From positions 1-33,137 of the forward strand of contig CAMAWD010000075.1 in assembly GCA_945861785.1 (NCBI GenBank): 33,137 bases of DNA, given 5' to 3'. The notes beneath the pieces were generated by a model. That model saw nothing but the letters and a program-made list of their open reading frames with translations, did no database searches and was not told the origin of the DNA. Shown in pieces: positions 2,907 to 33,137 of the stretch. The DNA is from Rhodoferax sp. OV413 (lineage in GTDB: Bacteria > Pseudomonadota > Gammaproteobacteria > Burkholderiales > Burkholderiaceae_C). Within the stretch, counting starts at the first letter, position 1. Each line of letters opens with the position of its first letter. Both the position numbers and the translations under genes were made by a program.

Positions 2907-3342
2907 GGCTTCTTCTATTCAAAAGGAACAACACGACAACAATGGCCAGGAATGCAACCAGGGACATCAGTGGAATGGTCAGGAACCCCCAGATCTGCAG
3001 TTTGACATCGCTGCAGGGGACGTCCTGGCTGCATGGCTGGATCCCTTTCGGTATGTAGCCAAGGTACAGCAGGCAGTGGAACGCGGCAAGGGCCACGCCG
3101 ACAAGCGCCAAGGGCTGGGCATACTTGACGACGTGTACGTCTTGTGTCCACAACGCAATGCCGAGGATGAGCGCCAGCGCATACATGGGAATGCGTTGGT
3201 ACCAGCACAACACGCAAGGCGCGTAGTCCATCACCTCACTCAAGAACAGACTGCCCGCCATTGAAACGACTGCCAGGAGCCAGCCGACGAACAGCAACGC
3301 CCATTGGCGCGCACTGATCACCGTTGCTGGGTTAAGCGGCAT
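2893..3342 (-). CDS. dsbB: Disulfide bond formation protein B (DsbB/BdbC type)
   Basis: A small four-helix membrane protein of 149 residues. It shows the two cysteine pairs of the family: C43-V-L-C46 following the first periplasmic loop (YAPCVLCWYQRIPMYALAL) and C104/C110 in the second (QPCSQDVPC). DsbB reoxidises DsbA by passing electrons to quinone. The start at 3342 (MPLNPATV) gives an 11-base overlap with lspA; a start at 3393 is also open but would overlap lspA by more than 60 bases. Together with the overlapping DsbA-like gene it forms a complete oxidative pair. Confidence 0.92.
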   Translation of the reverse strand: MPLNPATVISARQWALLFVGWLLAVVSMAGSLFLSEVMDYAPCVLCWYQRIPMYALALILGIALWTQDVHVVKYAQPLALVGVALAAFHCLLYLGYIPKGIQPCSQDVPCSDVKLQIWGFLTIPLMSLVAFLAIVVVLFLLNRRSHEEK

Positions 3343-6180: not shown

Positions 6181-6612
6181 TTATGGCGCGGCGCCGTGCT
6201 CCTGCCCGAGCTGGTCGAGGATCGGGCAGTCGGGCCGGTGGTCACCGTGGCAGCAATGCACCAGCGACGCCAGCGTCTGTTTCATGGACACCAGTTCGGC
6301 GATGCGACGGTCCAGGTCGGCCAGGTGTACCGAGGCAATGCGTTTGACGTTTTCGCTGGAGCGCCGCTTGTTATGCCACAGTTTCAGCAACTCGGAAATC
6401 TCGGGCATGCTAAAACCCAAGTCGCGGGCGCGCTTGATGAAACGCAGCGTGTGCACCTCGCGCTCGGTGTACTGCCGGTAGCCTGAATCAGTGCGCAGGA
6501 CCGCAGGCAACAGGCCCAGGGCTTCGTAGTGGCGCACCATCTTGGCGGAGACTTTGGCGCGCTCCGCGGCTTGGCCGATATTGAAGGTGTTCGTCATGGT
6601 CATGTCGGTCAT
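6181..6612 (-). CDS. cueR: Copper-responsive MerR-family regulator CueR
   Basis: CueR senses cytoplasmic Cu(I) and activates promoters with a long -35/-10 spacer. The 143-residue protein has the MerR winged-helix domain ([20 protein letters not shown] at residues 11-30), a dimerisation helix over about residues 80-118, and a metal-binding loop [13 protein letters not shown], with Cys121 and Cys129 at the two CueR ligand positions. Its ATG overlaps the copA stop (ATGA), so it is cotranscribed with copA from a CueR-type promoter and should be autoactivated. A start at residue 4 or 6 is also possible. Targets predicted here are the boxes at 4327-4352, 8886-8911 and 8962-8987. Confidence 0.95.
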
Positions 6613-8831
6613 TTGGCATTCCCCTTCCAGCGCCGCAACAGCAAGGCATTGGTCACGACGCTGACGCTACTCAGTGCCATGGCCGCGCCGGCAATCATCG
6701 GATTGAGCCAGCCAAATGCCGCCAGCGGCACACCGACCAGGTTGTAGACAAAGGCCCAGAACAGGTTTTGACGTATCTTGGCATAGGTTCGGCGCGAGAT
6801 GTCGATCGCGTCGGCGACCATGCCCGGATCACCGCGCATCAGGGTGACGCCTGCGGCATGCATGGCCACATCGGTGCCCGTGGACATGGCGATGCCCACA
6901 TCGGCCGCCGCCAATGCCGGCGCATCGTTGATGCCGTCGCCCACCATGGCCACGGTGGCTCCACCAGCCTTGAGTTCACCCACGATGCGGGCCTTGTCTT
7001 CGGGCAGTAGGTTGGCACGGATCTCGTCGATCCCCACTTGTTGCCCCACCAGCGAGGCACTGCCCTGGTTGTCGCCCGTCAACAGGACGACCCGCACGCC
7101 CTGCCGTTGCAGCTGGGCGACCGCTGCTCTGGCATCCGGCTTCACGGTATCGCCAAAAGCCAGCAGGCCGAGCAATACGGGTTGTACCCCCGCCTCAGCC
7201 AGCCAGGAGACGGTTCGCCCCTGATTTTGCAGGTCGCGCGCCAACCCAGCCGACGGCGTCAGGTCGACCCCAAGTTCCTCCATCAGGCGTGTGCTGCCCA
7301 GGCGCAGGTCACGCCCACCGATGATCGCCGCCATGCCGCGCCCGGGAAGGGCACGAACCTGCGTTGCCGGCAACAGCGCGACACTTTCCGTCCGCGCCGC
7401 ATCGAGCACCGCCTGCGCCAGCGGGTGTTCACTGCCCGCCTGAATGGACGCACTGGCCGACAAAAGCGCGGCCCGATCACCGTCCGCCGCATGGGCGGCC
7501 ACCAGTTGCGGCCGGCCTTGCGTCAGCGTGCCGGTCTTGTCGAAGGCCACGACCTGCACCTTGTGCGCAATCTCCAGGGCCTGCGCGTCCTTGATCAGGA
7601 TGCCGTGCCGAGCCGCCACACCCGTGCCAGCCATGATGGCGGTGGGTGTCGCCAGGCCGAGTGCACAAGGACAGGCGATGACCAGCACCGCCACGGCATT
7701 CAGGATCGCGGTCTCCCAGTTGCCTGTGCCCAGCCCCCAACCCAGCAGCGTAACCAGGGCGATGGCAATCACGATCGGCACGAACACCGCGCTGACACGG
7801 TCCACCAGCCGCTGTATCGGGGCTTTGTGTGCCTGTGCCGACTCCACCAATCGCACGATGCGCGCCAGCGTCGATTCCGCACCAGTGGCCGTGGTCCGCA
7901 CCACCAGCAAGCCCTGCGCATTGACCGAACCGCCAGTCACCTTGTCCCCCGGGTGTTTGTCCAGCGGCAGGCTCTCCCCGGTGATGAGCGATTCGTCGAC
8001 CTGGCTGGCGCCTTCCAGCACCACACCGTCCACCGGCATGCGTTCGCCGGGGTGCACCACGACCAGGTCGTCCCGTCGAACCTGGCCGATCGGCAATTCC
8101 TGGTCCTGGCCATCGCGGCGTACCCGCGCGGTTTCGGGGCGCAGCGCGTTCAGGGCGCGGATCGCCGCTGTGGTCTGGCGCTTGGCGCGCGCCTCCAGCC
8201 ACTTGCCCAATAGCACCAAGGTGATGACAACTGCCGAGGCTTCGAAATACAAATGAGGCGTCCCGTGTTCGGCATGTGCCAGCATCAGGTAGACGCTGAG
8301 TCCGTAGCCGGCTGATGTGCCCAGTGCCACCAGCAAGTCCATGTTGCCGACCCCGGCCCTCATGGCGCCCCAGGCCGAACGGTAGAACCGCGCACCCAAC
8401 CAGAACTGCACTGGCGTGGCGAGTGCCAACTGCAGCCAGCCGGGCAACATCCAGTCCGCGCCGAGGAGCGACCCGACCATGGGGACGACCAGGGGCAGCG
8501 ACAGCATGGCGGACAACACAATCGGCCACCAGGCGGCTGTCGACTGCGCCGCAGCTTCAACATCCTGCATACCGGACACAGTGGCGCCGTGCGTGCTGTA
8601 CCCGGCCTTTTCGACCGCCGCGACCAGCATGGACAGGTCGGCCTCAGCACCGACCAGTGTCACCTCCGCTTTTTCAGTTGCCAGGTTGACTTCAGCGGAA
8701 ACCACGCCAGGCACCTTTTGGAGCGCCTTCTCAACGCGGGCCACACAGGACGCGCAGGTCATTCCTTCAATCGGCAAGGTCCAGGCCGTCGAAGTGCCTG
8801 AAGGCGGGGAAAGTGTGGCTAGCATGCGCAT
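6609..8831 (-). CDS. copA: Copper-exporting P1B-type ATPase CopA
   Basis: A Cu(I) efflux ATPase of 740 residues in the inner membrane. It has one N-terminal heavy-metal-binding domain (GMTCASC at residues 23-29), the intramembrane CPC motif in [15 protein letters not shown], the phosphorylation site DKTGTLT, the HP motif in SEHPLA and the hinge [20 protein letters not shown]. Many homologues have two N-terminal metal domains; this one has a single domain. The start at 8831 follows AAGGAG with four spacer bases; a second ATG two codons later is also possible. It is divergent from copZ, and each gene has a CueR box in the shared intergenic region. It exports copper to the periplasm, where the oxidase and cupredoxins act. 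Confidence 0.97.
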
Positions 8832-9827: not shown

Positions 9828-10142
9828 TTGATTATTCGTCATGCCTTGTTGGCGGGGCTGCTTGCGACACTTTCGCTTGCCAGTGCCGCCGTACTGGCCC
9901 AAACCACCCCCGCATCCCCCATGCACCCCACTCCCAGCGAGCCGACCCAAAGCACCCAGGCTGTCACCAATCCGGCGGCCACCGTGCCCGCTGTTTTGTA
10001 CCGGTCAGTCTTCGTTGACACGCCTACCGGCGTGGAGACAGAAGAATTGGACTGGAGACGCGCCAATGCGGATGTCGGCCAATTCAAACGCGGTCACGTC
10101 GACATCCTGCAGTGGGAAAGCCGCAAGGAGGCCAAACCATGA
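9828..10142 (+). CDS. Small exported protein upstream of TolC-type gene
   Basis: A 104-residue exported protein of unknown function. It has a signal peptide ending ASAAVLAQ, a Pro/Thr-rich linker (about residues 26-50) and a conserved-looking C-terminal part with VETEELDWRRANADVGQF and ILQWE. No cysteine and only a few histidines are present, so direct copper binding by a cluster is not evident. The start is TTG at 9828, preceded by GGAG at seven bases. The stop overlaps the ATG of the TolC-like gene (ATGA), so the two are coupled and the protein probably assists that efflux system in the periplasm. Confidence 0.75.
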   Translation: MIIRHALLAGLLATLSLASAAVLAQTTPASPMHPTPSEPTQSTQAVTNPAATVPAVLYRSVFVDTPTGVETEELDWRRANADVGQFKRGHVDILQWESRKEAKP

Positions 10143-11557
10143 AACAACTTGCCCAAAGGGGCGTAGCGCTGGCCATCGCTGTGTTTCTGGTGGGTTGCGC
10201 AACCGTGTCACCGGATGGCGGCGTGGGTGACGTGCAGGCGCTGACGCAAGGGAAGACCTTTGTGGCACGGCCCATCGTGGGCCGTGGCCCGTCGGCGCAA
10301 ACCGATCAGGCGATTGCAGACCTGCTGGCGCAACCGGTCGCCGAAGACGCAGCTGTGCGTATCGCGCTGCTGAACAACCCGGGCTTGCAATCCTCGATAG
10401 CCACGCTGGGCATCAGCGATGCTGATAGGGTGCAGGCCGGTCGCTGGGCCAATCCACACCTTTCCTTGGGGCGGTTCGTCGAGGGCGACAGGGTCGAAAT
10501 CGAACGGATTCTCCGGTTCGACGTGATCGGCCTGCTCGCACTGCCGTGGCGCGCCAAATGGGCCGGACAACAAGCTGAACTGGCGAAGCTGCAAGCGGCG
10601 CAGGAGGTTGTGCGGCTGGCAGCCGACACCCGCAAGGCCTGGATCAACGCAGTTGCCGCGCAACAGACGGCGCGCTACATGCGCGATGTCAAGGAGTCTG
10701 CCGAGGCGGGTGCCGAGCTGGCGCGTCGTCTGGCGCGGGTCGGCAACTGGAGCCACCTGAACCAGGCGCGCGAGCAGAGCTTTCTGGCGGATGCCACAGC
10801 ACAGTTGGCCCGCAGCGAACAAGCCGCGTTCTCTAGCCGCGAGCAACTCACGCGGATGATGGGCCTCTGGGGCACCCAGACCAACTACCGCTTGCCCGAC
10901 CGGCTATCTGACCTGCCCGGGGAAGCGCGCCAGATCGCGGACGTCGAGGCCCAGGCCATCACGCAGCGGCTCGACGTGCGCAGCGCCACCATGGAGACCG
11001 CCTTTGTGGCGGATTCAATGGGCCTGGTCAAAGCCAGCGGCTTCATCGACGCGTTCGACGTGGGCTTCACGCGGGCTACCACGTTCGACAATGCCGCCAG
11101 CACGCGGGATACCCGGCGCGGCGTCGAGGTCGAGTTGCCCCTGCCCATCTTCGACTGGGGCCAGGCGCGCAATGCGCGGGCGCAGGCCGTCTACATGCAG
11201 TCGGTCGCCCGCGTGCGCGAGGTCGGGGTGCTGGCCCGCAGCGAGGCGCGCGCGTCCTACCACGGCTACCGCACCGCGTACGACCTGGCACGTTACTACC
11301 GCGACGAGATCGTGCCCTTGCGCAAGTTCATCAACGACGAGGTGCTACTGCGCTACAACGGCATGATCGTCGGCATTTTCGAACTGCTGGCCGATGCACG
11401 CACCAACGTCATGGCCGTCAATGCCAGCATCGAGGCGCAGCGCGACTTCTGGCTGGCCGATACCGACCTGCAAACCAGCCTCAGTGGAACCTCGCCAGGC
11501 AGTCTCTCCAAAATGCAAGCCACCGCCGCGGCGGGTGGTGAAGCCAAAGGACATTGA
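10139..11557 (+). CDS. TolC/CusC-type outer-membrane efflux lipoprotein
   Basis: A 472-residue outer-membrane channel subunit. The N-terminus MKQLAQRGVALAIAVFLVGC is a lipoprotein signal with the lipobox LVGC. Two long helical repeats follow, typical of TolC-family proteins, including SATMETAFVADSMG and a repeat after RRGVEVELPLPIFDWGQA, a strong family motif. It would form the outer-membrane exit for periplasmic copper or other substrates. No adaptor (MFP) or RND pump is encoded in the window, so the partner is elsewhere or the protein works with the multicopper oxidase locus differently. The start is chosen because it gives the signal peptide and overlaps the previous stop. The next gene follows within three bases. 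Confidence 0.92.
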   Translation: MKQLAQRGVALAIAVFLVGCATVSPDGGVGDVQALTQGKTFVARPIVGRGPSAQTDQAIADLLAQPVAEDAAVRIALLNNPGLQSSIATLGISDADRVQAGRWANPHLSLGRFVEGDRVEIERILRFDVIGLLALPWRAKWAGQQAELAKLQAAQEVVRLAADTRKAWINAVAAQQTARYMRDVKESAEAGAELARRLARVGNWSHLNQAREQSFLADATAQLARSEQAAFSSREQLTRMMGLWGTQTNYRLPDRLSDLPGEARQIADVEAQAITQRLDVRSATMETAFVADSMGLVKASGFIDAFDVGFTRATTFDNAASTRDTRRGVEVELPLPIFDWGQARNARAQAVYMQSVARVREVGVLARSEARASYHGYRTAYDLARYYRDEIVPLRKFINDEVLLRYNGMIVGIFELLADARTNVMAVNASIEAQRDFWLADTDLQTSLSGTSPGSLSKMQATAAAGGEAKGH

Positions 11558-11559
11558 AA

Positions 11560-12975
11560 ATGGCATCCAAAGCATTGAACCGACGACTCTTTTTTGCCGG
11601 CGCCGCGACCGCTGTCACAGCGGCTGCGGTCAGCCGCGTGGCCATGGCTGCCCTGCCGGAACCGGTGATCCAGACCAAGCCCGACACCATGCCGCCGCTG
11701 GTGCCCAAGACCGGCCGGCCCTACAACCCGGTCATCACGCTCAATGGCTGGACACTGCCCTGGCGCATGAACGCGGGCGTGAAGGAATTCCACCTGGTGG
11801 CCGAACCCGTGGTGCGCGAAATGGCACCCGGATTCAAGGCCAACATGTGGGGCTACAACGGCCAGAGCCCCGGCCCGACCATCGAGGTCGTAGAGGGTGA
11901 TCGCGTGCGCATCTTCGTCACCAACAAGTTGCCCGAACACACCACCATCCACTGGCATGGCCAGCGGCTCCCCAATGGCATGGACGGTGTCGGCGGACTC
12001 AACCAACCGCAGATCCCGGTCGGAAAGACCTATGTCTACGAGTTCGAGGCGCGTCGCCCTGGCACCTTCATGTACCACCCTCATGCGGACGAGATGACGC
12101 AGATGGCCATGGGCATGATGGGATTCTGGGTAACGCACCCCAAGACAAAGCATCCTTTGATAGACGAAGTAAACCGGGACTTCTGCTTTTTGCTCAATGC
12201 CTACGACATCGACCCTGGCAGCAAGACGCCCAAGATCATGACGATGACGGACTTCAACCTCTGGTCCTGGAACAGCCGCCTCTTCCCCGGCATCGACTCG
12301 CTCAACGTGCGGCTGAACGACAAGGTGCGGATCCGGATCGGTAACCTGACCATGACCAACCATCCGATTCACCTGCACGGGCACGAGTTTCTTGTAACTG
12401 GCACCGATGGCGGCCCGACGCCCAAAAGCACCAGGTGGCACGAAGTGACCGCCGATGTGGCCGTCGGCCAGATGCGGCAGATCGAGTTCCTGGCTGACGA
12501 GGAAGGCGACTGGGCCTTCCACTGCCACAAGAGTCACCACACCATGAATGCCATGGGGCACGATGTGCCCACGATGATCGGTGTGGACCACCGGGGCCTG
12601 GTCAAGAAACTGCAGAAGTTGGTGCCCGACTACATGGTGATGGGTGAACGCGGCATGGCCGACATGGGCGAGATGGAAATGCAGATCCCAGACAACACTT
12701 TGCCGATGATGACCGGCAGCGGCCCTTACGGTGGAGTCGAAATGGGTGGCATGTTCAGTGTGCTCAAGGTGCGCCGCGACCAGAAACCTGGCGACTACAG
12801 CAACAGCGGCTGGTACCAGCAGCCGCCAGGCACGCAGGCATTCGAGTGGACCGGAGCACTACCCGACCCGGCACGCTTCAAGGCAGAAGGTCAAGGCTCC
12901 ATGCCGTTGGCCGCCTCCCCCACCAGGACCACCCAGGTCCAGGTACGTAAACCCTCGGGCCCAATGGCCCACTAA
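11560..12975 (+). CDS. Tat-exported multicopper oxidase (copper oxidase)
   Basis: A 471-residue periplasmic multicopper oxidase that probably oxidises Cu(I) to the less toxic Cu(II). The N-terminus carries a twin-arginine signal (ALNRRLFFAGAATA). The copper sites are all visible: HWHG near residue 132, HPH near 174, HPIHLHGHEF in the C-terminal domain and HCHKSHHTMNAM, which holds the type 1 ligands. Met-rich segments (MAMGMMG, MGERGMADMGEMEMQ) add possible Cu(I) binding sites. It is shorter than classical CopA oxidases (about 600 residues). The ATG follows AAAGGA by nine bases; a TTG six bases earlier overlaps the previous gene. It lies in an operon with the TolC-like and CopI-like genes. 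Confidence 0.94.
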   Translation: MASKALNRRLFFAGAATAVTAAAVSRVAMAALPEPVIQTKPDTMPPLVPKTGRPYNPVITLNGWTLPWRMNAGVKEFHLVAEPVVREMAPGFKANMWGYNGQSPGPTIEVVEGDRVRIFVTNKLPEHTTIHWHGQRLPNGMDGVGGLNQPQIPVGKTYVYEFEARRPGTFMYHPHADEMTQMAMGMMGFWVTHPKTKHPLIDEVNRDFCFLLNAYDIDPGSKTPKIMTMTDFNLWSWNSRLFPGIDSLNVRLNDKVRIRIGNLTMTNHPIHLHGHEFLVTGTDGGPTPKSTRWHEVTADVAVGQMRQIEFLADEEGDWAFHCHKSHHTMNAMGHDVPTMIGVDHRGLVKKLQKLVPDYMVMGERGMADMGEMEMQIPDNTLPMMTGSGPYGGVEMGGMFSVLKVRRDQKPGDYSNSGWYQQPPGTQAFEWTGALPDPARFKAEGQGSMPLAASPTRTTQVQVRKPSGPMAH

Positions 12976-12996: not shown

Positions 12997-13497
12997 TTGA
13001 AAAATACGATCAAACTCCTGGCGACTTGCGCCATTCTGGCTGGCTCTGGCGCCACTTTTGCGTCCGGTACCCACGGCGGCGGGCATGAACCCGACACGAT
13101 TGGGAAACCTGGGGTGCTTTCCAAGGTGACGCGTACCGTCAATGTGGACATGAGCGACGCCATGCGCTACAGCCCTGCCAGTCTCACCGTCAATCAGGGC
13201 GAAACCGTTCGCCTTGTCGTCAAGAACTCGGGCAAGCTGACCCATGAGTTGGTTCTGGGCACGCAAAAGGAACTCAAGGAGCACTACGAAATCATGAAGA
13301 AGAATCCGGAGATGGAGCACGACGACCCGAAGATGCTTACCGTTAAGGCGGGAAAAATCGGCCAGATCGTGTGGCAGTTCACCAAAGCGGGTACGGTTGA
13401 TTTTGCTTGCCTTCAGCCCGGTCACTACGATGCAGGCATGAAGGGTGCTGTGGCCGTTGCACCTGGCAAGAACTCCGCGAAAGTGGCCTCCAAGTAG
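12997..13497 (+). CDS. copI: CopI-like periplasmic cupredoxin
   Basis: A 166-residue exported cupredoxin that resembles CopI of Rubrivivax gelatinosus, a periplasmic copper-tolerance protein. After the signal peptide (MKNTIKLLATCAILAG) comes a His-rich start (THGGGHEP), then a cupredoxin domain. Type 1 ligands His83, Cys138, His143 and Met148 are complete (KLTHELVLG; ACLQPGHYDAGM). A charged loop KELKEHYEIMKKNPEMEHDD is rich in His and Met. The start is TTG at 12997, ten bases after AAGGAA; no ATG fits the signal peptide. It follows the oxidase by 21 bases and could shuttle or store copper for it. Confidence 0.9.
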   Translation: MKNTIKLLATCAILAGSGATFASGTHGGGHEPDTIGKPGVLSKVTRTVNVDMSDAMRYSPASLTVNQGETVRLVVKNSGKLTHELVLGTQKELKEHYEIMKKNPEMEHDDPKMLTVKAGKIGQIVWQFTKAGTVDFACLQPGHYDAGMKGAVAVAPGKNSAKVASK

Positions 13498-13564
13498 GTG
13501 CATGGCGACCTTGTTGCATCAGCCTCATTTTTTGTATTCCCCCTCGAACTCGATAGGAATTACC

Positions 13565-13888
13565 ATGAAAAGCCTCGGCAATTTCGCCACCGCAGCCCTG
13601 CTGGCATTCGCTTCGCTCGCGCCCACGCCCCTTCTTGCCCAGACCACGATGGGATCCATGGTGATGGAGATGAGCAATGGCGAAGTCAGAAAGATTGACA
13701 AGGACGCCCAGAAGATCACCCTCAAGCATGGCGAAATCAAGAGCATGGACATGCCGCCGATGACGATGGTTTTCAGGGTCCTCGACATGTCATTGTTCGA
13801 CAAGGTCAAAACCGGTGACAAGGTGAAATTTAGTGCCGAAAAGCGCGACGGCGCCATTGTCGTGACGGCGATCGAAGTCGCCAAATAG
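13565..13888 (+). CDS. cusF: CusF-like periplasmic copper-binding protein
   Basis: A 107-residue exported protein with a signal peptide ending PTPLLAQ and a CusF-type OB-fold domain. His55 (ITLKHGEI), Met66 and Met68 (MPPMTMVFRV) match the Cu(I) ligands of E. coli CusF, while the tryptophan that caps the site in CusF is Met63 here, a common variant. CusF proteins carry Cu(I) or Ag(I) to efflux systems. The ATG at 13565 gives the signal peptide; the frame is open further upstream. No CusCBA pump is complete in this window, but the TolC-like protein lies in the same gene series. Confidence 0.9.
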   Translation: MKSLGNFATAALLAFASLAPTPLLAQTTMGSMVMEMSNGEVRKIDKDAQKITLKHGEIKSMDMPPMTMVFRVLDMSLFDKVKTGDKVKFSAEKRDGAIVVTAIEVAK

Positions 13889-15118: not shown

Positions 15119-15832
15119 CTACGTGTACTTCTTGTAAAACGCGCACTGGTGTCGCGCCAGCCACCCAGTCAAGACGACGATAAACCCTGCGCAGCGCTCC
15201 CAAGCCACAGCCCCCGGCCAGACACACAGTGCCACCCCGCCCAGCCCCAGCACCGCCATCTGCAGGTACTTTGCCCGATGGTACAGGCTGGCTGACTCCC
15301 GCCCTCCACAGGACCTCCGAATCGCGCGCTCGGTCAGTCCATCCCCCGTGCCCACCGCGTACAGAAGCAGAACCAGCGGCAGGAATCGCAGGAGTATCGC
15401 GAAGCGCACCCCCAGCAATTGGGTTCCGACCATCGCTGTCTCGACGGCCTCACGATTGGCAAGGTAGCTGCGACGGACCACCGTGTCCGGGATCGACAAG
15501 GCCAATGGATCGGCGAACCGAAGCCCCATGTCGTGGATGCCGGTGGCCTCGAACACAAGGCCATACAAAAAGTTCGCCGGCCCGGTGATCTCGCCTGCCC
15601 CCCGGCCCTGCAGTGCAGCCAGCGCGATGCCATGCCCGAGATCGGCGGCGAGCAGTCCACGCAACCGGCCCACGCCATCGGTCCAGACTCGAGACACGAA
15701 CACCCAATCAATGCTCCAGGCAACGACAAGAATCACTACCAACCCCAAGACCAGCGAGAACGCCAACTTCAGTGGGCTCAGTAGCACGCCCGCCAATGGA
15801 CCATCATGGAAGGACGTGTTCTTACTCGCCAA
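15119..15832 (-). CDS. DUF4400-type integrating-element membrane protein (TraJ-like)
   Basis: A 237-residue membrane protein with an N-terminal helix (LAFSLVLGLVVILVVAW) and two or three helices in the C-terminal half. It resembles the DUF4400 / TIGR03747 family of conjugative-element membrane proteins. In SXT/R391 and IncA/C elements such a gene directly follows traD, as here. Its role in conjugation is not well defined. The start is TTG at 15832, preceded by GGAG at seven bases, overlapping the traD stop; an in-frame ATG at 15928 would overlap traD by more than 100 bases. The ending FYKKYT is close to the transposase scar but appears natural. Confidence 0.8.
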   Translation of the reverse strand: MASKNTSFHDGPLAGVLLSPLKLAFSLVLGLVVILVVAWSIDWVFVSRVWTDGVGRLRGLLAADLGHGIALAALQGRGAGEITGPANFLYGLVFEATGIHDMGLRFADPLALSIPDTVVRRSYLANREAVETAMVGTQLLGVRFAILLRFLPLVLLLYAVGTGDGLTERAIRRSCGGRESASLYHRAKYLQMAVLGLGGVALCVWPGAVAWERCAGFIVVLTGWLARHQCAFYKKYT

Positions 15833-17888
15833 GATTGGGCTCCACTCGCGGTACTGGATCCTGGTCTTCCTGTGGCCGATTCCAAGGCCCATCCAGTCGG
15901 CTGCGCATAGCTTGCCCAATCGCAGCAAGACCTTCAGGCATCAGCGGGTCGTGCTCAGTACTGGGCAACGGCATGCGAATCTTGTGCAACTGGCCACCAT
16001 GTATCAGCGCAAAAGCCTGGCCCTTGGGCAACTGCACAAGGTCGGTCGGCTCCAGCATGCGAACGCACTCCGGTGCAATACGGTCCTCATTTCGGCTGGC
16101 AAAGTCGGTGAACTCACCCGGATCGTTGGTATCCGAGACCGACGACGACACGATGGTCGACACCACCTGCACCTGTGGCAACTGGTCGGTCAGCAACTCG
16201 GCAGTCGCCACCTCTTTGACCCGCAACATGATCAGCGTGTTGAAGTTGCCGGCGATCTGTCCAGCCTTCGCCGGTGAACCGATCCGGGCCTCCACGTCCG
16301 ACCAGGTCTGCGTGTACGCCGTCACCTGAAACCCGGCGCCACCAGCCTTGTTCAGCAGCGGAATGAACTCGTCGCCAATCAATTCGTTGAACTCGTCGGC
16401 ATGGATAGCGATCCGCCTCGATCTGATCTCGCCTGGTAGCCCTCGGCCGGGTCCGAACTTGTACAGGCTGCCGGCCACGCTGGTGAGATCGGCAAACATG
16501 GAATTGCCCACCGCCCCTGCCACTTCGTAGTCAGACAGCGCATCGAGCCCGACATAGACGATCCCGCCCAGGTTGATCACCGATGCCCAGTCGAACACCG
16601 GCCGCCAGTCAGTCGGATCGTCGAGGGCCGGCGACAACAGCGCCGCGGTGCGGCCGGTGGTGAGCTTTTCCATCAGGGGTAGAAGGGATGCCACCAGCTT
16701 GTCGAAATGGCTTTTCTCGTAGTTCAGTGTCGAAGCCAGCGCATGGGCAATCGGGTCGTAGAGCTTGCGCCGGCGCGCGTATTCGACCAAGCTGACCGCA
16801 CGCACGCCACGCGACTGCAGTCCCTTGTCCAGGCTCTTCTTGTCGATCGCCATCGACTGCAATTCCTCGCGCCAGCCGACAGCCGCAGGCTCCCGGTCGA
16901 ACCAGTGCTCGAAATAGTCGATCAGGAGTGGTTCGATGTCAGAGGCATAACGGTTGATCTCCTGGTAGTCGGGCTTGCGCCCCAAGGCCACCAGCGCACG
17001 CGCCATCACGTTGACGAAACGCCAGACAAACTCCTTGAACGCCGCAGACTGCCCCTCCGAGGGCAACTGGCCGGCAATACGCGTGGCGACTTCGGTGATG
17101 CGCGAGAAACTGCCCACCGGGTTGTAACGCGCCGAGATCTCTGGGTGTCCCAGGTGGAACATGAAGAATTCATCCAAACGCCCTGCCCGCTGGCTTTCCG
17201 CATAGACGCGGCGCAGCAGGTCGATGTCCCCCTTGGGGTCGAATACGATCACCACCTCCCCGCGGCGGATGTCCTGGGTGATCAACAGCTCCGCCAGGCG
17301 CGTCTTGCCGACACGCGTCGTGCCCAGCACCAGCGTGTGGCCGACCCGGTCTGCGATGTCCATCCAGATGTCGGCTTCATCCGGTTCGACACCGTGGAGC
17401 GCCGGATCACCGCCCAGGCCAACGGGTGCCGCTTCCTGCGGGTTCAGACTTGTGAGGAGTCCCGCAAGCGAGCCTGGTTGCAACAGCGGCTGGTTCTCCG
17501 GACGCCGGGCCTCGAACAGACGCTGGGTGTGGCGCTGGTCCCACCGGAAACCCTGTCCCAAAAACAGCCGCTCGGCCGACCACGGGATCTGGGGTGCGGT
17601 CACCTCGTAACGACGCTGGCGCCGCAGGTTGGCACGGTAGCGCAGGTTTCGGAATCCAGCCGCACCCCGCCATGCTGCGTGCCCCATCAATGCACCGGCC
17701 AACAACCAGTCCCAGGGACGGCTCAACAGAAACAAGCCCGGATCCCACAGCACGACACCCGCGCTAAGCGCGGACACACAGGATGCGCGCAACTCATGCG
17801 CCGGACGCAGCAGGGCTTCGAGTGGATAAGTCATCAACAGATCGATCAAGTGGAGAAGGAGAAGAAGAATGAAAAGCACCAACACCAT
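15822..17888 (-). CDS. traD: Type IV coupling protein TraD
   Basis: TraD is the membrane ATPase that links relaxosome DNA to the secretion channel. The protein has N-terminal membrane helices, a Walker A motif GTTRVGKT near residue 190 and a Walker B motif IAIHADEFNELIGDE near residue 490, matching SXT-type TraD. KGDIDLLRRVYAE and FQVTAYTQTWSDVEAR are further family segments. The start is uncertain: ATG at 17888 adds an extra hydrophobic segment (LVLFILLLLLHLIDLL), whereas ATG at 17834 (MTYPLEALLRPAHEL) looks more like homologues. Both overlap the end of traI (95 or 41 bases), so traI, traD and the DUF4400 gene form one operon. Confidence 0.95.
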   Translation of the reverse strand: MVLVLFILLLLLHLIDLLMTYPLEALLRPAHELRASCVSALSAGVVLWDPGLFLLSRPWDWLLAGALMGHAAWRGAAGFRNLRYRANLRRQRRYEVTAPQIPWSAERLFLGQGFRWDQRHTQRLFEARRPENQPLLQPGSLAGLLTSLNPQEAAPVGLGGDPALHGVEPDEADIWMDIADRVGHTLVLGTTRVGKTRLAELLITQDIRRGEVVIVFDPKGDIDLLRRVYAESQRAGRLDEFFMFHLGHPEISARYNPVGSFSRITEVATRIAGQLPSEGQSAAFKEFVWRFVNVMARALVALGRKPDYQEINRYASDIEPLLIDYFEHWFDREPAAVGWREELQSMAIDKKSLDKGLQSRGVRAVSLVEYARRRKLYDPIAHALASTLNYEKSHFDKLVASLLPLMEKLTTGRTAALLSPALDDPTDWRPVFDWASVINLGGIVYVGLDALSDYEVAGAVGNSMFADLTSVAGSLYKFGPGRGLPGEIRSRRIAIHADEFNELIGDEFIPLLNKAGGAGFQVTAYTQTWSDVEARIGSPAKAGQIAGNFNTLIMLRVKEVATAELLTDQLPQVQVVSTIVSSSVSDTNDPGEFTDFASRNEDRIAPECVRMLEPTDLVQLPKGQAFALIHGGQLHKIRMPLPSTEHDPLMPEGLAAIGQAMRSRLDGPWNRPQEDQDPVPRVEPNLGE

Positions 17889-19185
17889 CAACCACGCGCA
17901 CCAGTGCCGGATCGATGGCTGGCAGTGGCTGGATGAATCGCTGCGGCTCGCGGATCACGATCCCGTTGATCCGGGTGGTCTCGCTGTCGGATCGCCCCCT
18001 CGCGTAGCGCCCTTTCTCGTAGCAAAAAATGCTCAAGCCACGGTCGGCACGCAGGTGCCAGCCCTCGCGCAACACCTCGCGCTGCACGCGCCTGGCAGCA
18101 TCGAACAACGGTTCGGACCCGCCGATCTGCTTGGCGAATTCCCTAAAAATCCGGGGTGAGGCGAGCAACAAACCTTCCGCCACCACGTGCACCAGGGCAT
18201 CCGGCGCGTTGACCGGCAACACGCCGCCCTGCACCCCCTGCCTCAGCCAGGCCATGAATTGCCCGGCGAGCGCGGATTCGACCGGACTCACCTCCTCCAG
18301 GAATTCGGGTGAATCCACGGTGGTGACCATCTGCGCTGCCGGGACACGCACGACGGCGACCGATGTCGCTGCCGGTATTCTTGGCGCAGGGGAGACCGCC
18401 GGGGTTGGCGCCAATGCACTCCTGGCCAGATCACACGCAACCAATTCTCTGATGACCCCGACCGGATCGGCCAGGCCACTCAGGCAGGCGAGAAGCTCAG
18501 CCATCAAAGCCTGATCCTCCCGGAGCCAGTCCTGAATGGGAGCAGGCACGCAGCGCTCGAACAAGCGCAGCGCGGTGGCCGGGTCGACTTCGACCGACGG
18601 CGCGTCAGCTGGCAAGGTCTCAATACGGTAACCAAGTGCGCCGCAGCCGCGCATCGGACCTGCCGCCGGTCTCCAGGCGCAAGGAATGCCGGTTCCCATC
18701 TGCATCCACACACGCATCCCCTGGCTGACCTGTGGCAAGTCACGCAGCAACGCCGCCACGAACACTGCGTAAGTCCAGCGATGCGCTTGTGCCCCAATGA
18801 CCTCCGGTGCCGCGCCGCGCGGCAAGATCTGCGAACGCCGGCGATCGAGTCCGCGAATTGCCGTGGCGAGCGCCCGACTCAGTTGTCCACCCAGTTGCCC
18901 AAATCGCCCCGAGCGCGAAACCGGCAGCATCTGCACGAGCTCGGCGTGGCCATCGATCAACGGCCGTGCGGCCAGCGCAAACACCTCCGGCGGAAATGCC
19001 AGCTTGATCCGCAGAACCGCAATAGCGTTGCCCAGGCCCAGGGTATCGATCAGCGACTGTGCATCCAGCACGGGTTGCACAGTGCCAGGAATCGAAGTCG
19101 CCCCACCCGACGCGATCGGCACCCCCATCCGGTCGCCAAAGTCGCCGCCACTTACTGGCGCGCGTCTGTCTTCAATGTGGTTCAT
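17794..19185 (-). CDS. traI: TraI_2-domain (MOB-H) protein with degenerate relaxase site
   Basis: A 463-residue protein related to SXT TraI and PFGI-type ICE relaxases. The N-terminal half has the TraI_2 pattern (DGHAELVQMLPVSR, then HRWTYAVFVAALLRDL, then CGALGYRI). The C-terminal half matches the TraI_2_C/DUF1528 domain (FMAWLRQGVQGGVLPVNAPD, REFAKQIG, GLSIFCYEKGRYARG). Active homologues have histidines after LPAS (S-HHH, then GGLL-H) and LLHDxGK. Here these positions read SGRF at 91-95, GGQLSRAL at 99-106 and LLRDL at 146-150, so only the aspartate of the HD pair is kept. SXT TraI has about 716 residues. The start at 19185 is a best guess; an upstream start at 19281 is open. Confidence 0.85.
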   Translation of the reverse strand: MNHIEDRRAPVSGGDFGDRMGVPIASGGATSIPGTVQPVLDAQSLIDTLGLGNAIAVLRIKLAFPPEVFALAARPLIDGHAELVQMLPVSRSGRFGQLGGQLSRALATAIRGLDRRRSQILPRGAAPEVIGAQAHRWTYAVFVAALLRDLPQVSQGMRVWMQMGTGIPCAWRPAAGPMRGCGALGYRIETLPADAPSVEVDPATALRLFERCVPAPIQDWLREDQALMAELLACLSGLADPVGVIRELVACDLARSALAPTPAVSPAPRIPAATSVAVVRVPAAQMVTTVDSPEFLEEVSPVESALAGQFMAWLRQGVQGGVLPVNAPDALVHVVAEGLLLASPRIFREFAKQIGGSEPLFDAARRVQREVLREGWHLRADRGLSIFCYEKGRYARGRSDSETTRINGIVIREPQRFIQPLPAIDPALVRVVDGVGAFHSSSPSPLDRSVDDLSTRSPAASGA

Positions 19186-19488
19186 GCGGCCAGTATTTCG
19201 CGCGCGCCGGTGGCCGACGACCACGATGGTGGCCTCAACAAAGTCCTGATTCGGCCTTGACACCGTGCTCGCGCGGTGCATCCGAGCCCTTGCACCTCGC
19301 CCACACCAGGGGCGCCACCGCCAATAACGAGATTCGAGCCACCGAAACCACCGCTTGTCTACGAGGAATCAGGACTTTTGTGGGGCCCCGATTCGCCCTG
19401 ATTCGCGGGCCTTGCCTGCCTACGATGGTCTCCATACGCGCTGTGCCGAACACGGTCGGTGCCGGAAGCAACCACCAAGGAGAGCCTG
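19186..19488. other. Divergent intergenic region between traI and the secretion operon
   Basis: About 300 bases hold the 5' ends of both transfer transcripts and no convincing gene. The traI frame remains open over the first 96 bases, so part could be coding if a longer start is used. It contains three copies of GATTCG, an 8-base inverted repeat and a GGGGCCCC palindrome. It is the best place in the window for promoters and possibly for the origin of transfer, but no oriT sequence is recognised. Confidence 0.5.
19366..19404. repeat. Inverted repeat with nested palindrome and direct repeats
   Basis: GAATCAGG (19366-19373) and CCTGATTC (19397-19404) are perfect inverted repeats separated by 23 bases. 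The loop contains the palindrome GGGGCCCC (19382-19389). GATTCGC occurs twice in tandem (19390-19396 and 19400-19406), with a related GATTCGAG at 19331. Such structures occur in operators and near nick sites. Confidence 0.6.
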
Positions 19489-29107: not shown

Positions 29108-30131
29108 CTCCATCCTGACCCGCTTGCTGAGCGGGCTCGCAGCCACCATTGCAATGGTGATCAGCCTGGCGGGCCTGGCCACTTCGGCACAAGCCGGGCC
29201 GACCTGCCACGGCCAGTTCATGAACCCGATCACCGACATCTGCTGGAGCTGCATGTTTCCGCTGACGCTGGGCTCGGCCACCCTGGTTTCGGACGGCCAG
29301 CCAGACATCGCCAACCCCTCGTCACCGGTCTGCTTCTGCAAGAACCCGCCGCGCATTGGTGTGGCGATCGGCTTCTGGGAACCGGTGCGGCTGGTCGACG
29401 TTACCCGCACGCCGTTTTGCATGGTCGGACTCGGTGGCCTGCAACTCGACCCCGGCATCGAAGTTCCACGTGGAGCGCAGGTGGGCCACGACAGCCAAAC
29501 ACGCAACAGCTTCTACCAGGTGCATTGGTACGCCAACCCGATCCTGAGCTGGCTGGAGGTGCTGCTCGACTTTCCCTGCCTGGAGCAGGGCTCGTTCGAT
29601 CTGGCCTACCTGACCGAAGTCGACCCGCTATGGGCCGACGATGAACTCTCCGCCATCCTGAACCCTGAGGCAGTGCTGTTCGCCAATGTCGTCGCCAAAG
29701 CTGCCTGCGCGGCCGACTGTGTCGCGGCGAGCGCCGGCATGCCGCTGGCTTCTCTGTTCTGGTGTGCCGGATGCCAGGGCTCGATCTACCCGATGACCGG
29801 TCATGTCACGACCCACATCGGTGGCGTGCAGGCCTCGGTACTGCTGGCCCAGCGCATGACCGCCAAGATGCATCGCCAGTTCGCCACCTTCACTGGCGCC
29901 GGCAGCCAGGGTCTGTGCGGCTACTACCCACTGCCGATCATGGACAAGACCCACTACAAGCTGCAGATGGTCTACCCGGTACCGGCCACCTCCAAGGAAA
30001 ACGGCCAATGCTGCCAGCCGTATGGCCGCACCACCATGGTCTGGGGAGCCGGCAAAGAGTTTCCGGTGAGCGGCGAGGACTTCTCGTACCAGATCTTTCG
30101 CAAAAGGAATTGCTGTGCAGGTGCGTTCTGA
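29094..30131 (+). CDS. traU: Type-F conjugative transfer protein TraU
   Basis: TraU is a Cys-rich periplasmic protein needed for DNA transfer. The 345-residue protein has a signal peptide ending SAQAG and the family segments ITDICWSCMFPLTLG, PVCFCKNPPRIGVAIGFWEP, GCQGSIYPMTGHV and NGQCCQPYGRTTMVWG. It contains well over ten cysteines, likely clients of the element's Dsb proteins. It overlaps traW by 14 bases and trbC by 17. Confidence 0.95.
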   Translation: MNSCNSILTRLLSGLAATIAMVISLAGLATSAQAGPTCHGQFMNPITDICWSCMFPLTLGSATLVSDGQPDIANPSSPVCFCKNPPRIGVAIGFWEPVRLVDVTRTPFCMVGLGGLQLDPGIEVPRGAQVGHDSQTRNSFYQVHWYANPILSWLEVLLDFPCLEQGSFDLAYLTEVDPLWADDELSAILNPEAVLFANVVAKAACAADCVAASAGMPLASLFWCAGCQGSIYPMTGHVTTHIGGVQASVLLAQRMTAKMHRQFATFTGAGSQGLCGYYPLPIMDKTHYKLQMVYPVPATSKENGQCCQPYGRTTMVWGAGKEFPVSGEDFSYQIFRKRNCCAGAF

Positions 30132-30939
30132 AATGACTGGCGGACTGTTGTGCTGGATCGCTGCCGCGATCCTCGTCCCGTGCGTCGCGCTCGGACAGCC
30201 GGTGCCTCCTTCGGCGTCTTCGCCGATTTCGCCGTCTTTGCCTTCATCCAATTCGGCTGCATCGCGGCCATCGCCCCAATGGCCAGGTCCCGACGACACG
30301 ACGCGTGCACTCAAGGAACGGCCGCTGCCAACACCCGAGCGCCTGGCCACCCAGCCACCACGCGAGATACCCCGTATCGGCCCCAATACGGCCGTACCAC
30401 CAACAACGGGCACCATCGACATTGCGGCAATGGCCAGGCAGGGTGCAGCACTCACCACGCCGCCCCCGTCAGCGAACGCCACCAACGCACTGCGCATCTT
30501 CATCACCCTGGACATGCCCCGCGGCAGCCTGCAGCGCCTGGTCGACCAGGCCCAGCGCTCCGGTGCCACCCTGGTGCTGCGCGGGCTCAAGTCCCAATCG
30601 ATGCGCCAGACGCTGGCAGCGGTGGGCGAGCTAATCGAAACACGCAACGTGTCGTGGGTCATCGACCCGGACGCCTTCACCCGCTTCTCTGTCAGCGCCG
30701 CACCGACCTTCGTGCTGACGCTGGCCGATGAACCGATGCCGGGTATGGCCGCCTTCGGTACCACCCCCGAACTGCCACGATGCAGCGGCACCAGTTGCAC
30801 ATCTCCAGCGGCCCTGTCGAGTTACCTCTCGATCGCCGGCGACGTCAGCCTGGACTACGCACTGGACGCGATGCTGCGCCGCAGCCCCGAGGCCGCAACG
30901 CGTGTCACCCCCCTCCTGCAGAAACTGCGCAAATCATGA
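30115..30939 (+). CDS. trbC: Type-F pilus assembly protein TrbC
   Basis: A 274-residue exported protein. A signal peptide (CWIAAAILVPCVALGQ) is followed by a long Ser/Pro-rich region and a TrbC_Ftype domain: LRIFITLDMPRGSLQRLVDQ, GATLVLRGL, APTFVLT. TrbC binds TraW in F pilus assembly. The start is GTG at 30115, with AAAAGGA just upstream inside traU; an ATG six codons later is an alternative. Confidence 0.92.
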   Translation: MQVRSEMTGGLLCWIAAAILVPCVALGQPVPPSASSPISPSLPSSNSAASRPSPQWPGPDDTTRALKERPLPTPERLATQPPREIPRIGPNTAVPPTTGTIDIAAMARQGAALTTPPPSANATNALRIFITLDMPRGSLQRLVDQAQRSGATLVLRGLKSQSMRQTLAAVGELIETRNVSWVIDPDAFTRFSVSAAPTFVLTLADEPMPGMAAFGTTPELPRCSGTSCTSPAALSSYLSIAGDVSLDYALDAMLRRSPEAATRVTPLLQKLRKS

Positions 30940-30949
30940 GTCTGCACAC

Positions 30950-31921
30950 ATGAACCTGCCAGCAATTACCGCCCTGCTGATCGCCATGTCGAGCGTCGCG
31001 GTGCAGGCCCAATCCCTGTCCGACGCCTTCAGCCAGGGCACGGCGCTCGGGCGCAGCGGCAACGCCGCGGCCCGTTTCCAGATCACTGGAAACACCGCAC
31101 AGTCCAACGTACCCGGCTACACCACCAACCCACCGCAGTCGTCCTACTTTGGCGGTGTGGGCATCTCGACGCCCGCTGCGGCGGCCGCAAATGCCTGCAC
31201 GGGCCCGGGCGACAGTGGGGACCTCGCAGCGCAGGCCTGCAACGCGATCAACTTCTCGCAGACCAACCCGACCCGCCGTCCAATCTTCAGCATCACCCAA
31301 ACCGATCCGCTGCTGACTGGCTCCAAGGCGATCACGGCCGATCCCCAGGCCATCGCCGGCAACATCGCCGGCACCTACAGCGGCTGCACCGTTCAGACCA
31401 CCACCACGCCCGACCGTTTCGAGACGGCGTTGTGCCACCAGGTCCGCACGACGGAAACGCTGTCCTGCGACAAGGTGCTGATCGTGACACCGGTGCAGAC
31501 GCCAGGCTGCTCGGATGGCCAGTTCCTGACCCGCGTCACCGCCGATCCCTGTCCGGGGTGCATCGACTACATCGCCTTTGATTTCAGCTGCGGCTCCAAC
31601 AGCTACCTGATGCATGCCTTCACCATTGCCAAGGCAAGCGGCCAGGTTTTCATGGAACTTGGCTCGCAAATCGTGCCCGGCACACTCAACACCCAGATCC
31701 CCCAGACCCCCGGTCCATCCCGGATCGACGGCTCCTTCTGCTACCGGACCCACTACAGCCAGTCCTGCACGGGTGCGAACTGCTCGATTGGCGCCTGGTT
31801 CTCCAACCCCTGCCAGGGCACCAGCTACTACGGTGTGAGCACCTTTGCCATGCCGACCACGGTGAGTTTCATCGACACCTGGGACAACCAGTGCGCGGCG
31901 CTGGAGGCGCGGACCCAATGA
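30950..31921 (+). CDS. traN: TraN N-terminal half as a separate protein
   Basis: A 323-residue exported protein. The signal peptide ends MSSVAVQAQ. The mature part lines up with the first part of F TraN: DAFSQGTALG, SNVPGYTTNPPQSSYFGG, TDPLLTGSKAITADPQAIAG, then a Cys-rich domain (SCDKVLIVTPVQTPGC, DPCPGC). It ends VSFIDTWDNQCAALEARTQ, at the point where F TraN continues into its second Cys-rich half. The next gene encodes that half. TraN is the outer-membrane adhesin that stabilises mating pairs. The ATG at 30950 gives the signal peptide; the frame is open upstream. The stop overlaps the next ATG. Confidence 0.82.
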   Translation: MNLPAITALLIAMSSVAVQAQSLSDAFSQGTALGRSGNAAARFQITGNTAQSNVPGYTTNPPQSSYFGGVGISTPAAAAANACTGPGDSGDLAAQACNAINFSQTNPTRRPIFSITQTDPLLTGSKAITADPQAIAGNIAGTYSGCTVQTTTTPDRFETALCHQVRTTETLSCDKVLIVTPVQTPGCSDGQFLTRVTADPCPGCIDYIAFDFSCGSNSYLMHAFTIAKASGQVFMELGSQIVPGTLNTQIPQTPGPSRIDGSFCYRTHYSQSCTGANCSIGAWFSNPCQGTSYYGVSTFAMPTTVSFIDTWDNQCAALEARTQ

Positions 31922-33137
31922 CCGCCATGCAGCCGACCCGAAGCACGTTGCGCCGATGGCTTTCGGCGCTGGCGCTCGCCGCGGCATTCGGCGTGATTTG
32001 CGCCGGCGCGTCACCCGCACATGGCGCCGATTGCGTCAAGAACTCGGAGGTCTGCGTCGAAGGCCCTGCCACCCGCAACATCGGCGGCTACCCGGTCTAT
32101 CGGGACTGCTGGCGCACCTCCTCGCAGTTCAGCTGCATCTCGCAGAACACGACCGATGACTGCCAGCCGTTGCGGGATCGAGGCTGCAGCCAGGTGGGAT
32201 CCAGCTGCGTGGAGACCAACCCGCAAGGCGCCTGCATGGTCTACGAGCAGACCTGGCAGTGCCGTATCGCCTCTGGCACAACTTCCACCGTCACAAACTG
32301 CGGCAGCCAGCAGTTCTGCATCGATGGCCGCTGCTTTGACACCTCGCACGCTCCCGACGCCGACTTCGCCCGCGCCATTGCCGGCCTGGAAGTACAGCGC
32401 GAGGCCGGCAAGTACCTCGACCCCAACACCCTGGTCGTCTTTCAGGGCTACGACAACCGCTGCCGCAAGAAACTCTTCGGCCTGGTGAATTGCTGCAAAC
32501 GCGGCGGCAGCGACGGCTCCTTGTTCTCCACCATGAGCCTGATCGCCGGCGCTGGCGGCCAGGCGATCGGTGCTGTCGGATCGAGCTACACCTATGACGC
32601 GCTGTTCGCCTCAGATGCGCCGGGTTTTGTGATCCAGGGCTTCGAGGCCCTGTTCGGCGCGGGCGGCGGCTCCTCGGCATTGGCCGGTGTCATGGCCGGC
32701 GACCTGTCCGTAGGCAGCTTCATCGAAACCCTGATCCCCGGCCCATGGTCAATTGCCATGCTGGCGATCCAGCTCTCGGGCCTGCTTTCGTGCGAGCAGG
32801 CAGAGCAGATCCTGGCCATGAAGAACGACAACCGCCTGTGCCACAGCGTGGGAAGTTATTGCTCTGCCAAGGTCCCGATCCTCGGCACCTGCATCCAGAC
32901 GACACAGACCTACTGCTGCTTCAACTCCCGGCTCGCCCGCATCCTGAATGAGCAGGGACGCGGCCAACTCGCCCGCAGCTGGGGTGGGCCCAAGAGCCCC
33001 GATTGCAGCGGCTTCACCGTGGCCCAACTCCAGTCGCTGGACTTCTCGCGTATGGACCTCACCGAGTTCTACGCCGAGATCGCGCCGACGCTGCCCGACG
33101 TCGGCACGTTGCGCCAGAAGGCCCAGCAGCGCGTCAA
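31918..33137 (+). CDS. traN: TraN C-terminal half with its own signal peptide (partial)
   Basis: The gene runs off the right edge; 406 codons are visible. It starts with a signal peptide (WLSALALAAAFGVICAGAS, cleavage near AHGAD). The mature part matches the second half of F TraN: GGYPVYRDCWR, NPQGACMVYEQTWQC, CGSQQFCIDGRCF, FGLVNCCKRGG and later SYCSAKVPILGTCIQTTQTY and RQLARSW-like residues. The family normally holds both halves in one polypeptide of 600 or more residues. Here the C-half is exported separately and the ATG overlaps the preceding stop. The two halves probably associate outside the cell, possibly by disulfides, but this is inference. Confidence 0.85.
   Translation, partial: MTAMQPTRSTLRRWLSALALAAAFGVICAGASPAHGADCVKNSEVCVEGPATRNIGGYPVYRDCWRTSSQFSCISQNTTDDCQPLRDRGCSQVGSSCVETNPQGACMVYEQTWQCRIASGTTSTVTNCGSQQFCIDGRCFDTSHAPDADFARAIAGLEVQREAGKYLDPNTLVVFQGYDNRCRKKLFGLVNCCKRGGSDGSLFSTMSLIAGAGGQAIGAVGSSYTYDALFASDAPGFVIQGFEALFGAGGGSSALAGVMAGDLSVGSFIETLIPGPWSIAMLAIQLSGLLSCEQAEQILAMKNDNRLCHSVGSYCSAKVPILGTCIQTTQTYCCFNSRLARILNEQGRGQLARSWGGPKSPDCSGFTVAQLQSLDFSRMDLTEFYAEIAPTLPDVGTLRQKAQQRV

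What the first reader, a model, noticed from the sequence alone, without database searches (positions are those of the whole stretch)
30950..33137. TraN split into two separately exported proteins
The 323-residue protein matches the N-terminal part of F-type TraN and the next gene matches the C-terminal Cys-rich part. The second gene has gained a signal peptide and starts in an ATGA overlap. A simple frameshift would not create a signal peptide, so the split looks evolved. Receptor recognition, usually in the N-terminal/central region, could then vary independently of the C-terminal base.
Basis: partly seen in the sequence, partly recalled or inferred. Interest (0 to 1): 0.72.

Follow-up and report, generated by a model that had tools for sequence, protein, structure and literature searches.

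The report
Two-gene version of mating protein TraN
A surface protein that lets a DNA-donating bacterium grip its partner is here made as two separately exported proteins instead of one; the same two-gene form turns up on many related mobile elements, where the grip half mostly goes unrecognised.

Summary
Gene 1 (30950-31921, 323 aa) is the N-terminal lobe plus tip of F-type TraN. Gene 2 (31918 to window end, finishing just inside another contig, 412 aa) is the Cys-rich base with its own signal-like start. It is not a sequencing error: 21 of 22 close relatives are split (the other is cut off), and so are 17 of 19 plasmid regions that I chose to open. A signal-like start precedes the base in 45 of 45 split loci and 0 of 63 fused ones. 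Split and fused forms changed into each other at least 3-4 times on the tree.

The proposed benefit is only partly right. The tip is exchanged as a block, but the block ends about 40-80 residues into mature protein 2, and fused TraNs show as many tip swaps (113 of 521 pairs; split 23 of 100). So the split is not the swap joint; the tip co-varies with the start of protein 2, which suggests contact. Best reading: a bipartite TraN whose halves reassemble at the outer membrane. Databases mostly call the tip half 'hypothetical protein'.

The parts
30950..31921 (+). Gene 1, TraN N-lobe plus tip subunit, 323 aa
   Evidence: NCBIfam TraN N-terminal matches; hhalign of its family to F TraN 2-154, probability 95.4, E 1.9e-8
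30950..31009 (+). Signal peptide of protein 1 (residues 1-20, ending AVQA), end read by eye
   Evidence: Sequence; crude score; no SignalP available
31010..31459 (+). N-lobe of protein 1, about residues 21-170
   Evidence: Alignment to relatives and F TraN
31460..31918 (+). Tip region of protein 1, about residues 171-323, predicted nearly all beta, ending in WDNQCAALEARTQ
   Evidence: Replaced as a block in L017, L022, L023; beta strands, ten-residue pLDDT means 45-82, most of them 60 or more
31918..31921 (+). ATGA: start of gene 2 overlaps stop of gene 1
   Evidence: an ATG at -4 in 20 of 20 close relatives listed and in L019
31918..33137 (+). Gene 2, TraN Cys-rich base subunit, 406 codons here, 412 aa in all; 3' end on contig C124 (L003)
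31918..32025 (+). Signal peptide of protein 2 (about residues 1-36, ending SPAHG), end read by eye
   Evidence: crude score; signal-like start before the base in 45 of 45 split and 0 of 63 fused loci
32029..32292 (+). First Cys module of the base (about residues 38-125); its first 40 or so residues change with the tip; repeated in tandem on some plasmids
30115..30939 (+). trbC, upstream neighbour
   Evidence: PF09673 / TIGR02742
29049..30131 (+). traU
   Evidence: PF06834
23360..24223 (+). DsbC-like disulfide isomerase in the same transfer region
   Evidence: PF13098 and PF10411

Best explanation
This is a bipartite TraN. Gene 1 makes the N-lobe plus the receptor-reading tip; gene 2 makes the Cys-rich base that F-type work assigns to outer-membrane anchoring. 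A stop, an overlapping start and a signal peptide sit at the tip/base junction. The two proteins are made in step by coupled translation (ATGA), exported separately, folded with disulfides closed inside each chain, and reassemble, probably without a covalent link, at the donor outer membrane into a TraN-like adhesin that stabilises mating pairs. Shown by sequence: homology of both halves, a shared split point, the overlap in the close clade, signal-like starts, even cysteine counts, tip exchange, co-variation of the tip with the start of protein 2. Inferred: export, coupling, complex formation, outer-membrane location, receptor binding.
For: Homology of both halves. Position between trbC and traF-traH-traG, as in F. 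Of 80 genome-contig loci, 25 are split, 52 are one ORF (4 of them tip-less; L071 has the start of its N part in another frame) and 3 are cut off; of the 22 close relatives (L004-L024, L067; best-segment identity 67-82%) 21 are split, none fused, 1 cut off. 17 of 19 plasmid regions that I chose to open are split. An ATG at -4 exists in 30 of 44 split loci, 20 of 20 in the close clade. Signal-like start before the base: 45 of 45 split, 0 of 63 fused. Cysteines even in both halves in 37 of 38 split and 49 of 49 fused loci. In swap pairs of split loci, base columns 1-20 and 21-40 are 50% and 49% identical against 79% and 74% in other pairs; columns 41-60 are 82% against 88%.
Against: No biochemistry. 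AlphaFold2 could not be run on two chains; the fused relative gave mean pLDDT 61.5 and pTM 0.31, protein 1 alone 54.5 and 0.38, so no interface is shown. The N-lobe is poorly modelled in both, so this does not tell whether it needs a partner. No PDB sequence match for gene 2 at E <= 1 and one chance-level hit (E 0.89) for gene 1; no fold match at E <= 0.001. Even cysteine counts also allow two inter-chain bonds, and for fused loci the boundary rule was refined after a first count had given odd numbers. Many loci have several possible starts; some annotated starts are not at -4 (pDCB1, pAZI09). Some plasmids have another gene, a gap or an IS between the halves, so tight coupling is not universal. 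The 1.9 threshold was set after seeing the split scores.
Confidence: 0.78

Rival explanations
1. The two proteins act apart: protein 2 alone serves pilus assembly or anchoring, and protein 1 is a free or separately held adhesin.
For: PMC13104618 (passages) suggests a role of the base in pilus biogenesis distinct from the tip. Six tip-less TraNs (ORFs of 444-469 aa) exist, so a base without a tip persists.
Against: Protein 1 keeps an N-lobe that is conserved along with the base in fused TraN, and the tip co-varies with the start of protein 2.
Confidence: 0.14
2. The split is a neutral accident kept by descent, with coupled translation and reassembly making it harmless; it brings no benefit. (About benefit only, so compatible with the best explanation; the odds are not meant to add to one with it.)
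For: Fused and split forms both persist and show like rates of tip exchange, 113 of 521 and 23 of 100 pairs; even cysteine counts suggest a permissive cut.
Against: At least 3-4 changes between the states and the spread on plasmids could mean selection, but do not show it.
Confidence: 0.45
3. Sequencing error or decayed gene.
For: None found. The genome is a 202-contig assembly and the second gene is cut by the contig end.
Against: 21 of 21 classifiable close relatives and 17 of 19 opened plasmid regions are split; 45 of 45 split second genes have a signal-like start against 0 of 63 fused.
Confidence: 0.01
4. Gene 1 is not TraN but another exported protein.
For: Pfam has no TraN hit for it; of eight homologues of gene 1 tested (seven on plasmids, one genome locus) two have no NCBIfam hit and one only a short hit in the middle of a long TraN model.
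Against: NCBIfam E 1.4e-22 for the window's own gene 1 and hhalign to F TraN; one-ORF relatives join both halves.
Confidence: 0.02

Closest known systems
F-type TraN (TraN short; F, pKpQIL, R100)
   Same: Gene position, N-lobe, tip in the middle, Cys-rich base at the end; tip variable and base conserved (PMC9246713, PMC10516633: passages read).
   Different: One polypeptide of about 600 aa there; here two proteins. The window base also holds a ~100-residue stretch (hmm 164-262) that my profile did not match in F TraN.
NCBIfam NF009015 (PRK12355.3-1, 420 positions, called TraN)
   Same: Matches gene 2 nearly end to end, positions 9-412, so NCBI seems already to model a base-only TraN.
   Different: Gene 2 as read in the window scores 291.5 against a cut-off of 416, and gene 1 did not match this model.
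TraN medium, long and V-shaped types (IncA/C, IncH, A. baumannii; PMC13104618)
   Same: Base plus tip architecture.
   Different: Larger single proteins; the word 'split' does not occur in that main text.
Fused beta-proteobacterial TraN (L069, ORF of 709 aa)
   Same: Colinear with gene 1 plus gene 2; 42% identical over the base.
   Different: No internal stop, start or signal-like stretch.

Membership tests
F-type TraN | Homology over the C-terminal Cys-rich base (PF06986) | tested here: met
   219.9 bits against cut-off 23
F-type TraN | Homology over the N-terminal lobe | tested here: met
   NF009012 E 1.4e-22; hhalign to F TraN residues 2-154
F-type TraN | Place in the transfer operon between trbC and traF | tested here: met
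   Window trbC upstream; on C124 a 133-aa gene, then traF-like, traH, traG; F order. TraH and TraG score below their curated cut-offs
F-type TraN | At least 20-22 cysteines | tested here: met
   14 in protein 1 and 22 in protein 2 without its signal peptide
F-type TraN | One polypeptide with base and tip | tested here: not met
   Two ORFs in different frames
F-type TraN | Full-length NCBIfam equivalog cut-off | tested here: not met
   79.8 (gene 1) and 339 (gene 2) against 775 for NF009012
F-type TraN | Signal peptide | tested here: inconclusive
   Both proteins have signal-like starts by a home-made score; no SignalP
F-type TraN | Outer-membrane location and binding of a recipient outer-membrane protein | not testable with these tools
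   -

The most novel reading that the evidence does not exclude
The two-gene form makes the tip protein a diffusible, exchangeable subunit: when two such elements share a cell, tip proteins of one can dock on bases of the other, giving mixed receptor ranges without recombination. The co-varying start of protein 2 would then be the specificity code that limits which tips dock.
Probability: 0.15. Interest if true: 0.8.

Novelty: new variant of a known kind. Interest (0 to 1): 0.52.

Why it matters
TraN tips help decide which bacteria can receive a plasmid. In this two-gene form the gene called TraN in databases has no tip, and the tip gene is mostly called hypothetical: of the 60 rows listed (of 67 plasmid records that match gene 1), 53 have a hypothetical-protein name under the match (one of them with trbC at its edge), 2 are called TraN, 2 'conjugative transfer aggregate stability protein' and 3 have no annotation. 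A survey that takes TraN by annotation, as PMC13104618 describes in its section 5, would be expected to miss such tips. The natural edges of tip exchange also map, without a structure, which part of the base goes with the tip.

Tried and rejected
Sequencing error, pseudogene and non-TraN origin: rejected (see rivals). An mRNA structure at the junction that might hint at frameshifting: the 101-nt fold is no better than shuffles (z 0.92, 167 of 200 shuffles fold at least as well). 'The split enables tip swapping': rejected as stated, because fused loci swap as often. A first cysteine count gave odd numbers in most fused proteins; I put this down to signal-peptide cysteines and a boundary one cysteine too late, and with a refined rule the oddness vanished. 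The rule was made after seeing the first result. AlphaFold2 of a fused relative and of protein 1 gave weak models; fold searches with them gave nothing at E <= 0.001. PHROGs: no match for either protein. The pRA1 stretch that I fetched as an IncA/C yardstick gave no TraN match, so the comparison with IncA/C rests on papers; SXT TraN was not compared; a two-chain model was not possible.

Literature: eight full-text searches. Rows seen in the listings: 2 of 2, 2 of 2, 15 of 37, 11 of 11, 15 of 401, 15 of 4,004, 10 of 37, 12 of 35. No title or abstract start among these rows is about a two-gene TraN; the unlisted rows were not seen. Passages of PMC13104618 (and its section 5), PMC10516633, PMC9246713 and PMC11493245 were read; 'split' was searched in PMC13104618, PMC10516633 and PMC11493245 and does not occur in their main texts. 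Subscription papers and preprints are not held, so the form may well be described somewhere.

Rows dropped before counts: 21 of 108 loci with short, partial or tip-less segments before the identity table; 41 of 120 rows (long branches, unclassified, near-copies) before the careful tree. The uncut quick tree needed 5-6 changes. The best 80 of 92 related loci were returned. Of 18 class genomes (of 274 searched) with a TraN match I opened six more widely: one split (L135), one with N and C parts about 1 kb apart (L134), four in which my N profile found nothing at E <= 1 (L136-L139).

Full report
What is there. Its right part is an F-type transfer region: traE, traK, a TrbI/TraB-like gene, a DsbC-like gene, traV, traC, a gene without a family match, an S26 peptidase, traW, traU, trbC, then the two genes of the finding. 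Gene 1 is 30950-31921 (323 aa). Gene 2 starts at 31918 in an ATGA overlap and is open at the window end. Contig C124 shares an exact 36-base end overlap; read from there, gene 2 ends after 6 more residues (412 aa), followed by a 133-aa gene without a Pfam hit and by traF-like, traH and traG (the last two below their curated cut-offs). Linking the two contigs rests on that overlap and the expected gene order.

Homology. Gene 1 matches the front of TraN models and gene 2 the back, meeting near position 291 of TIGR02750. In the F plasmid my profiles match residues 17-172 and from 322 on of the 612-codon stop-to-stop ORF that holds TraN, leaving about 150 residues between. In the window the N-lobe ends near residue 170-190 of protein 1, so the region equivalent to the tip is in gene 1. 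The tip of F-type TraN carries receptor specificity (PMC9246713, PMC10516633; passages read).

Not an artefact. Of 80 related loci from species genomes, 25 are split, 52 are one ORF (4 of them tip-less; in L071 the start of the N part lies in another frame) and 3 cannot be told. Of the 22 close relatives 21 are split and one is cut off. Of 19 plasmid regions that I chose from the hit lists, 17 are split, among them pBCJ2315, pAOVO01, pBRH02, pDCB1 and RPME01; Denitratisoma pI and Piscinibacter plasmid unnamed1 are fused. My choice was not random, so these are not frequencies. The cut falls at one place: gene 1 mostly ends in a motif like WDNQCAxLExR plus a few residues, and the base begins near a Cys; in the fused Denitratisoma protein a like motif (WDNQCAEKEAR) runs on into the base.

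Coupling and export. An ATG at -4 is among the possible starts in 30 of 44 split loci, and in all 20 of the close clade in that list; L019, left out there, has it too. Other starts are possible in many, and some annotated ones differ. A crude signal-peptide score was run on the stretch before the base: a start with hydrophobic core 1.9 or more, a K/R before it and a cleavage-like end exists in 45 of 45 split loci and in 0 of 63 fused loci, whether or not a start codon is asked for. The threshold was set after seeing the split scores; the medians are 2.71 against 1.01, or 1.25 with any codon.

Cysteines. With one boundary rule, both halves have even counts in 37 of 38 split and 49 of 49 fused loci; the window has 14 and 22. 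A single bond across the cut is therefore not required in either form. Two are not excluded, and the rule for fused loci was refined after a first count.

History. A careful tree of the base (79 of 120 rows) needs 4 changes between split and fused, 3 of them forced by starred branches. Holding all 37 fused rows of the main clade together is rejected (AU p 7e-5), mainly, I think, because the fused Denitratisoma protein sits among split ones; the main clade was marked out after a first tree. Direction cannot be read from the counts; a re-fusion there is my inference. The bootstrap had not fully settled and several long branches remain.

Tip exchange. L017 and L021 are 78-96% identical in DNA (120-base steps) on both sides of a block of about 700 bp at 43-59% that starts in gene 1 after the N-lobe and ends inside gene 2. 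L022 and L014 show a like block with another backbone, while the blocks of L017 and L022 are 82-92% alike. In complete plasmids, pAOVO01 and pDCB1 are 89-98% identical upstream and 89-100% downstream; between lie 69-77% over the end of trbC and the N-lobe and 38-55% over the tip and the start of gene 2, so here the divergence starts before gene 1 and ends about 60-100 codons into gene 2. Of four other plasmid pairs compared, none showed so sharp a block. Over all pairs with N-lobe and base at 65% or more, tips fall under 45% in 23 of 100 split pairs and 113 of 521 fused pairs. Pairs are not independent, so this is rough, but gives no sign that the split raises the rate. In swap pairs of split loci base columns 1-20 and 21-40 are 50% and 49% identical against 79% and 74% in the other pairs; from column 41 on the gap is small. 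In fused pairs the drop reaches further, to about column 120 (69% against 90% in columns 81-120).

Mechanism. I read this as a TraN made of two exported subunits which reassemble. The co-variation of the tip with the first residues of protein 2 is the best evidence for contact; it is indirect, and a recombination tract may overrun a domain edge without any contact. The structure models could not show it: the better parts are beta strands in the tip region, in keeping with published descriptions of the tip.

Against known kinds. It is TraN by homology, place and cysteines, and departs in being two proteins. NCBI seems already to have a base-only model (NF009015); no family in the searches made names the partner other than by its partial match to whole TraN. 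In the listings that I saw there was no paper on the two-gene form; they cover open-licence papers only and several were capped.

Noticed in passing
L086, L087, L089, L123, L125, L128, L131 (plasmid loci): The first Cys module of the base (about 80-100 residues) is present two or three times in tandem in the second gene, and its cysteine count goes from 22 to 30, 32 or 42.
   Followed up: partly
How these elements hold a mating pair is open.
   Followed up: no
L093 (CP102478) 2514-3331: An IS402-type transposase gene lies between the two traN genes of a B. cenocepacia plasmid otherwise like pBCJ2315.
   Followed up: no
L087 2026-2739: A 237-aa gene called hypothetical sits between the two halves in pSTJ1.
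   Followed up: no
window 6609-8831 (-), 10112-12975 (+), 13445-13888 (+): Heavy-metal P-type ATPase, outer-membrane efflux protein, multicopper oxidase and CusF-like protein: looks like a copper-handling cargo.
   Followed up: no
window 15822-19281 (-): TraD-like coupling protein and TraI_2 protein on the minus strand, as in MOBH elements (that label is recalled).
   Followed up: no
window gene 2, hmm columns about 164-262 of the base: A ~100-residue glycine-rich, hydrophobic stretch is present in the window and its beta-proteobacterial kin and not matched in F TraN and several TraNs of the class sample.
   Followed up: partly
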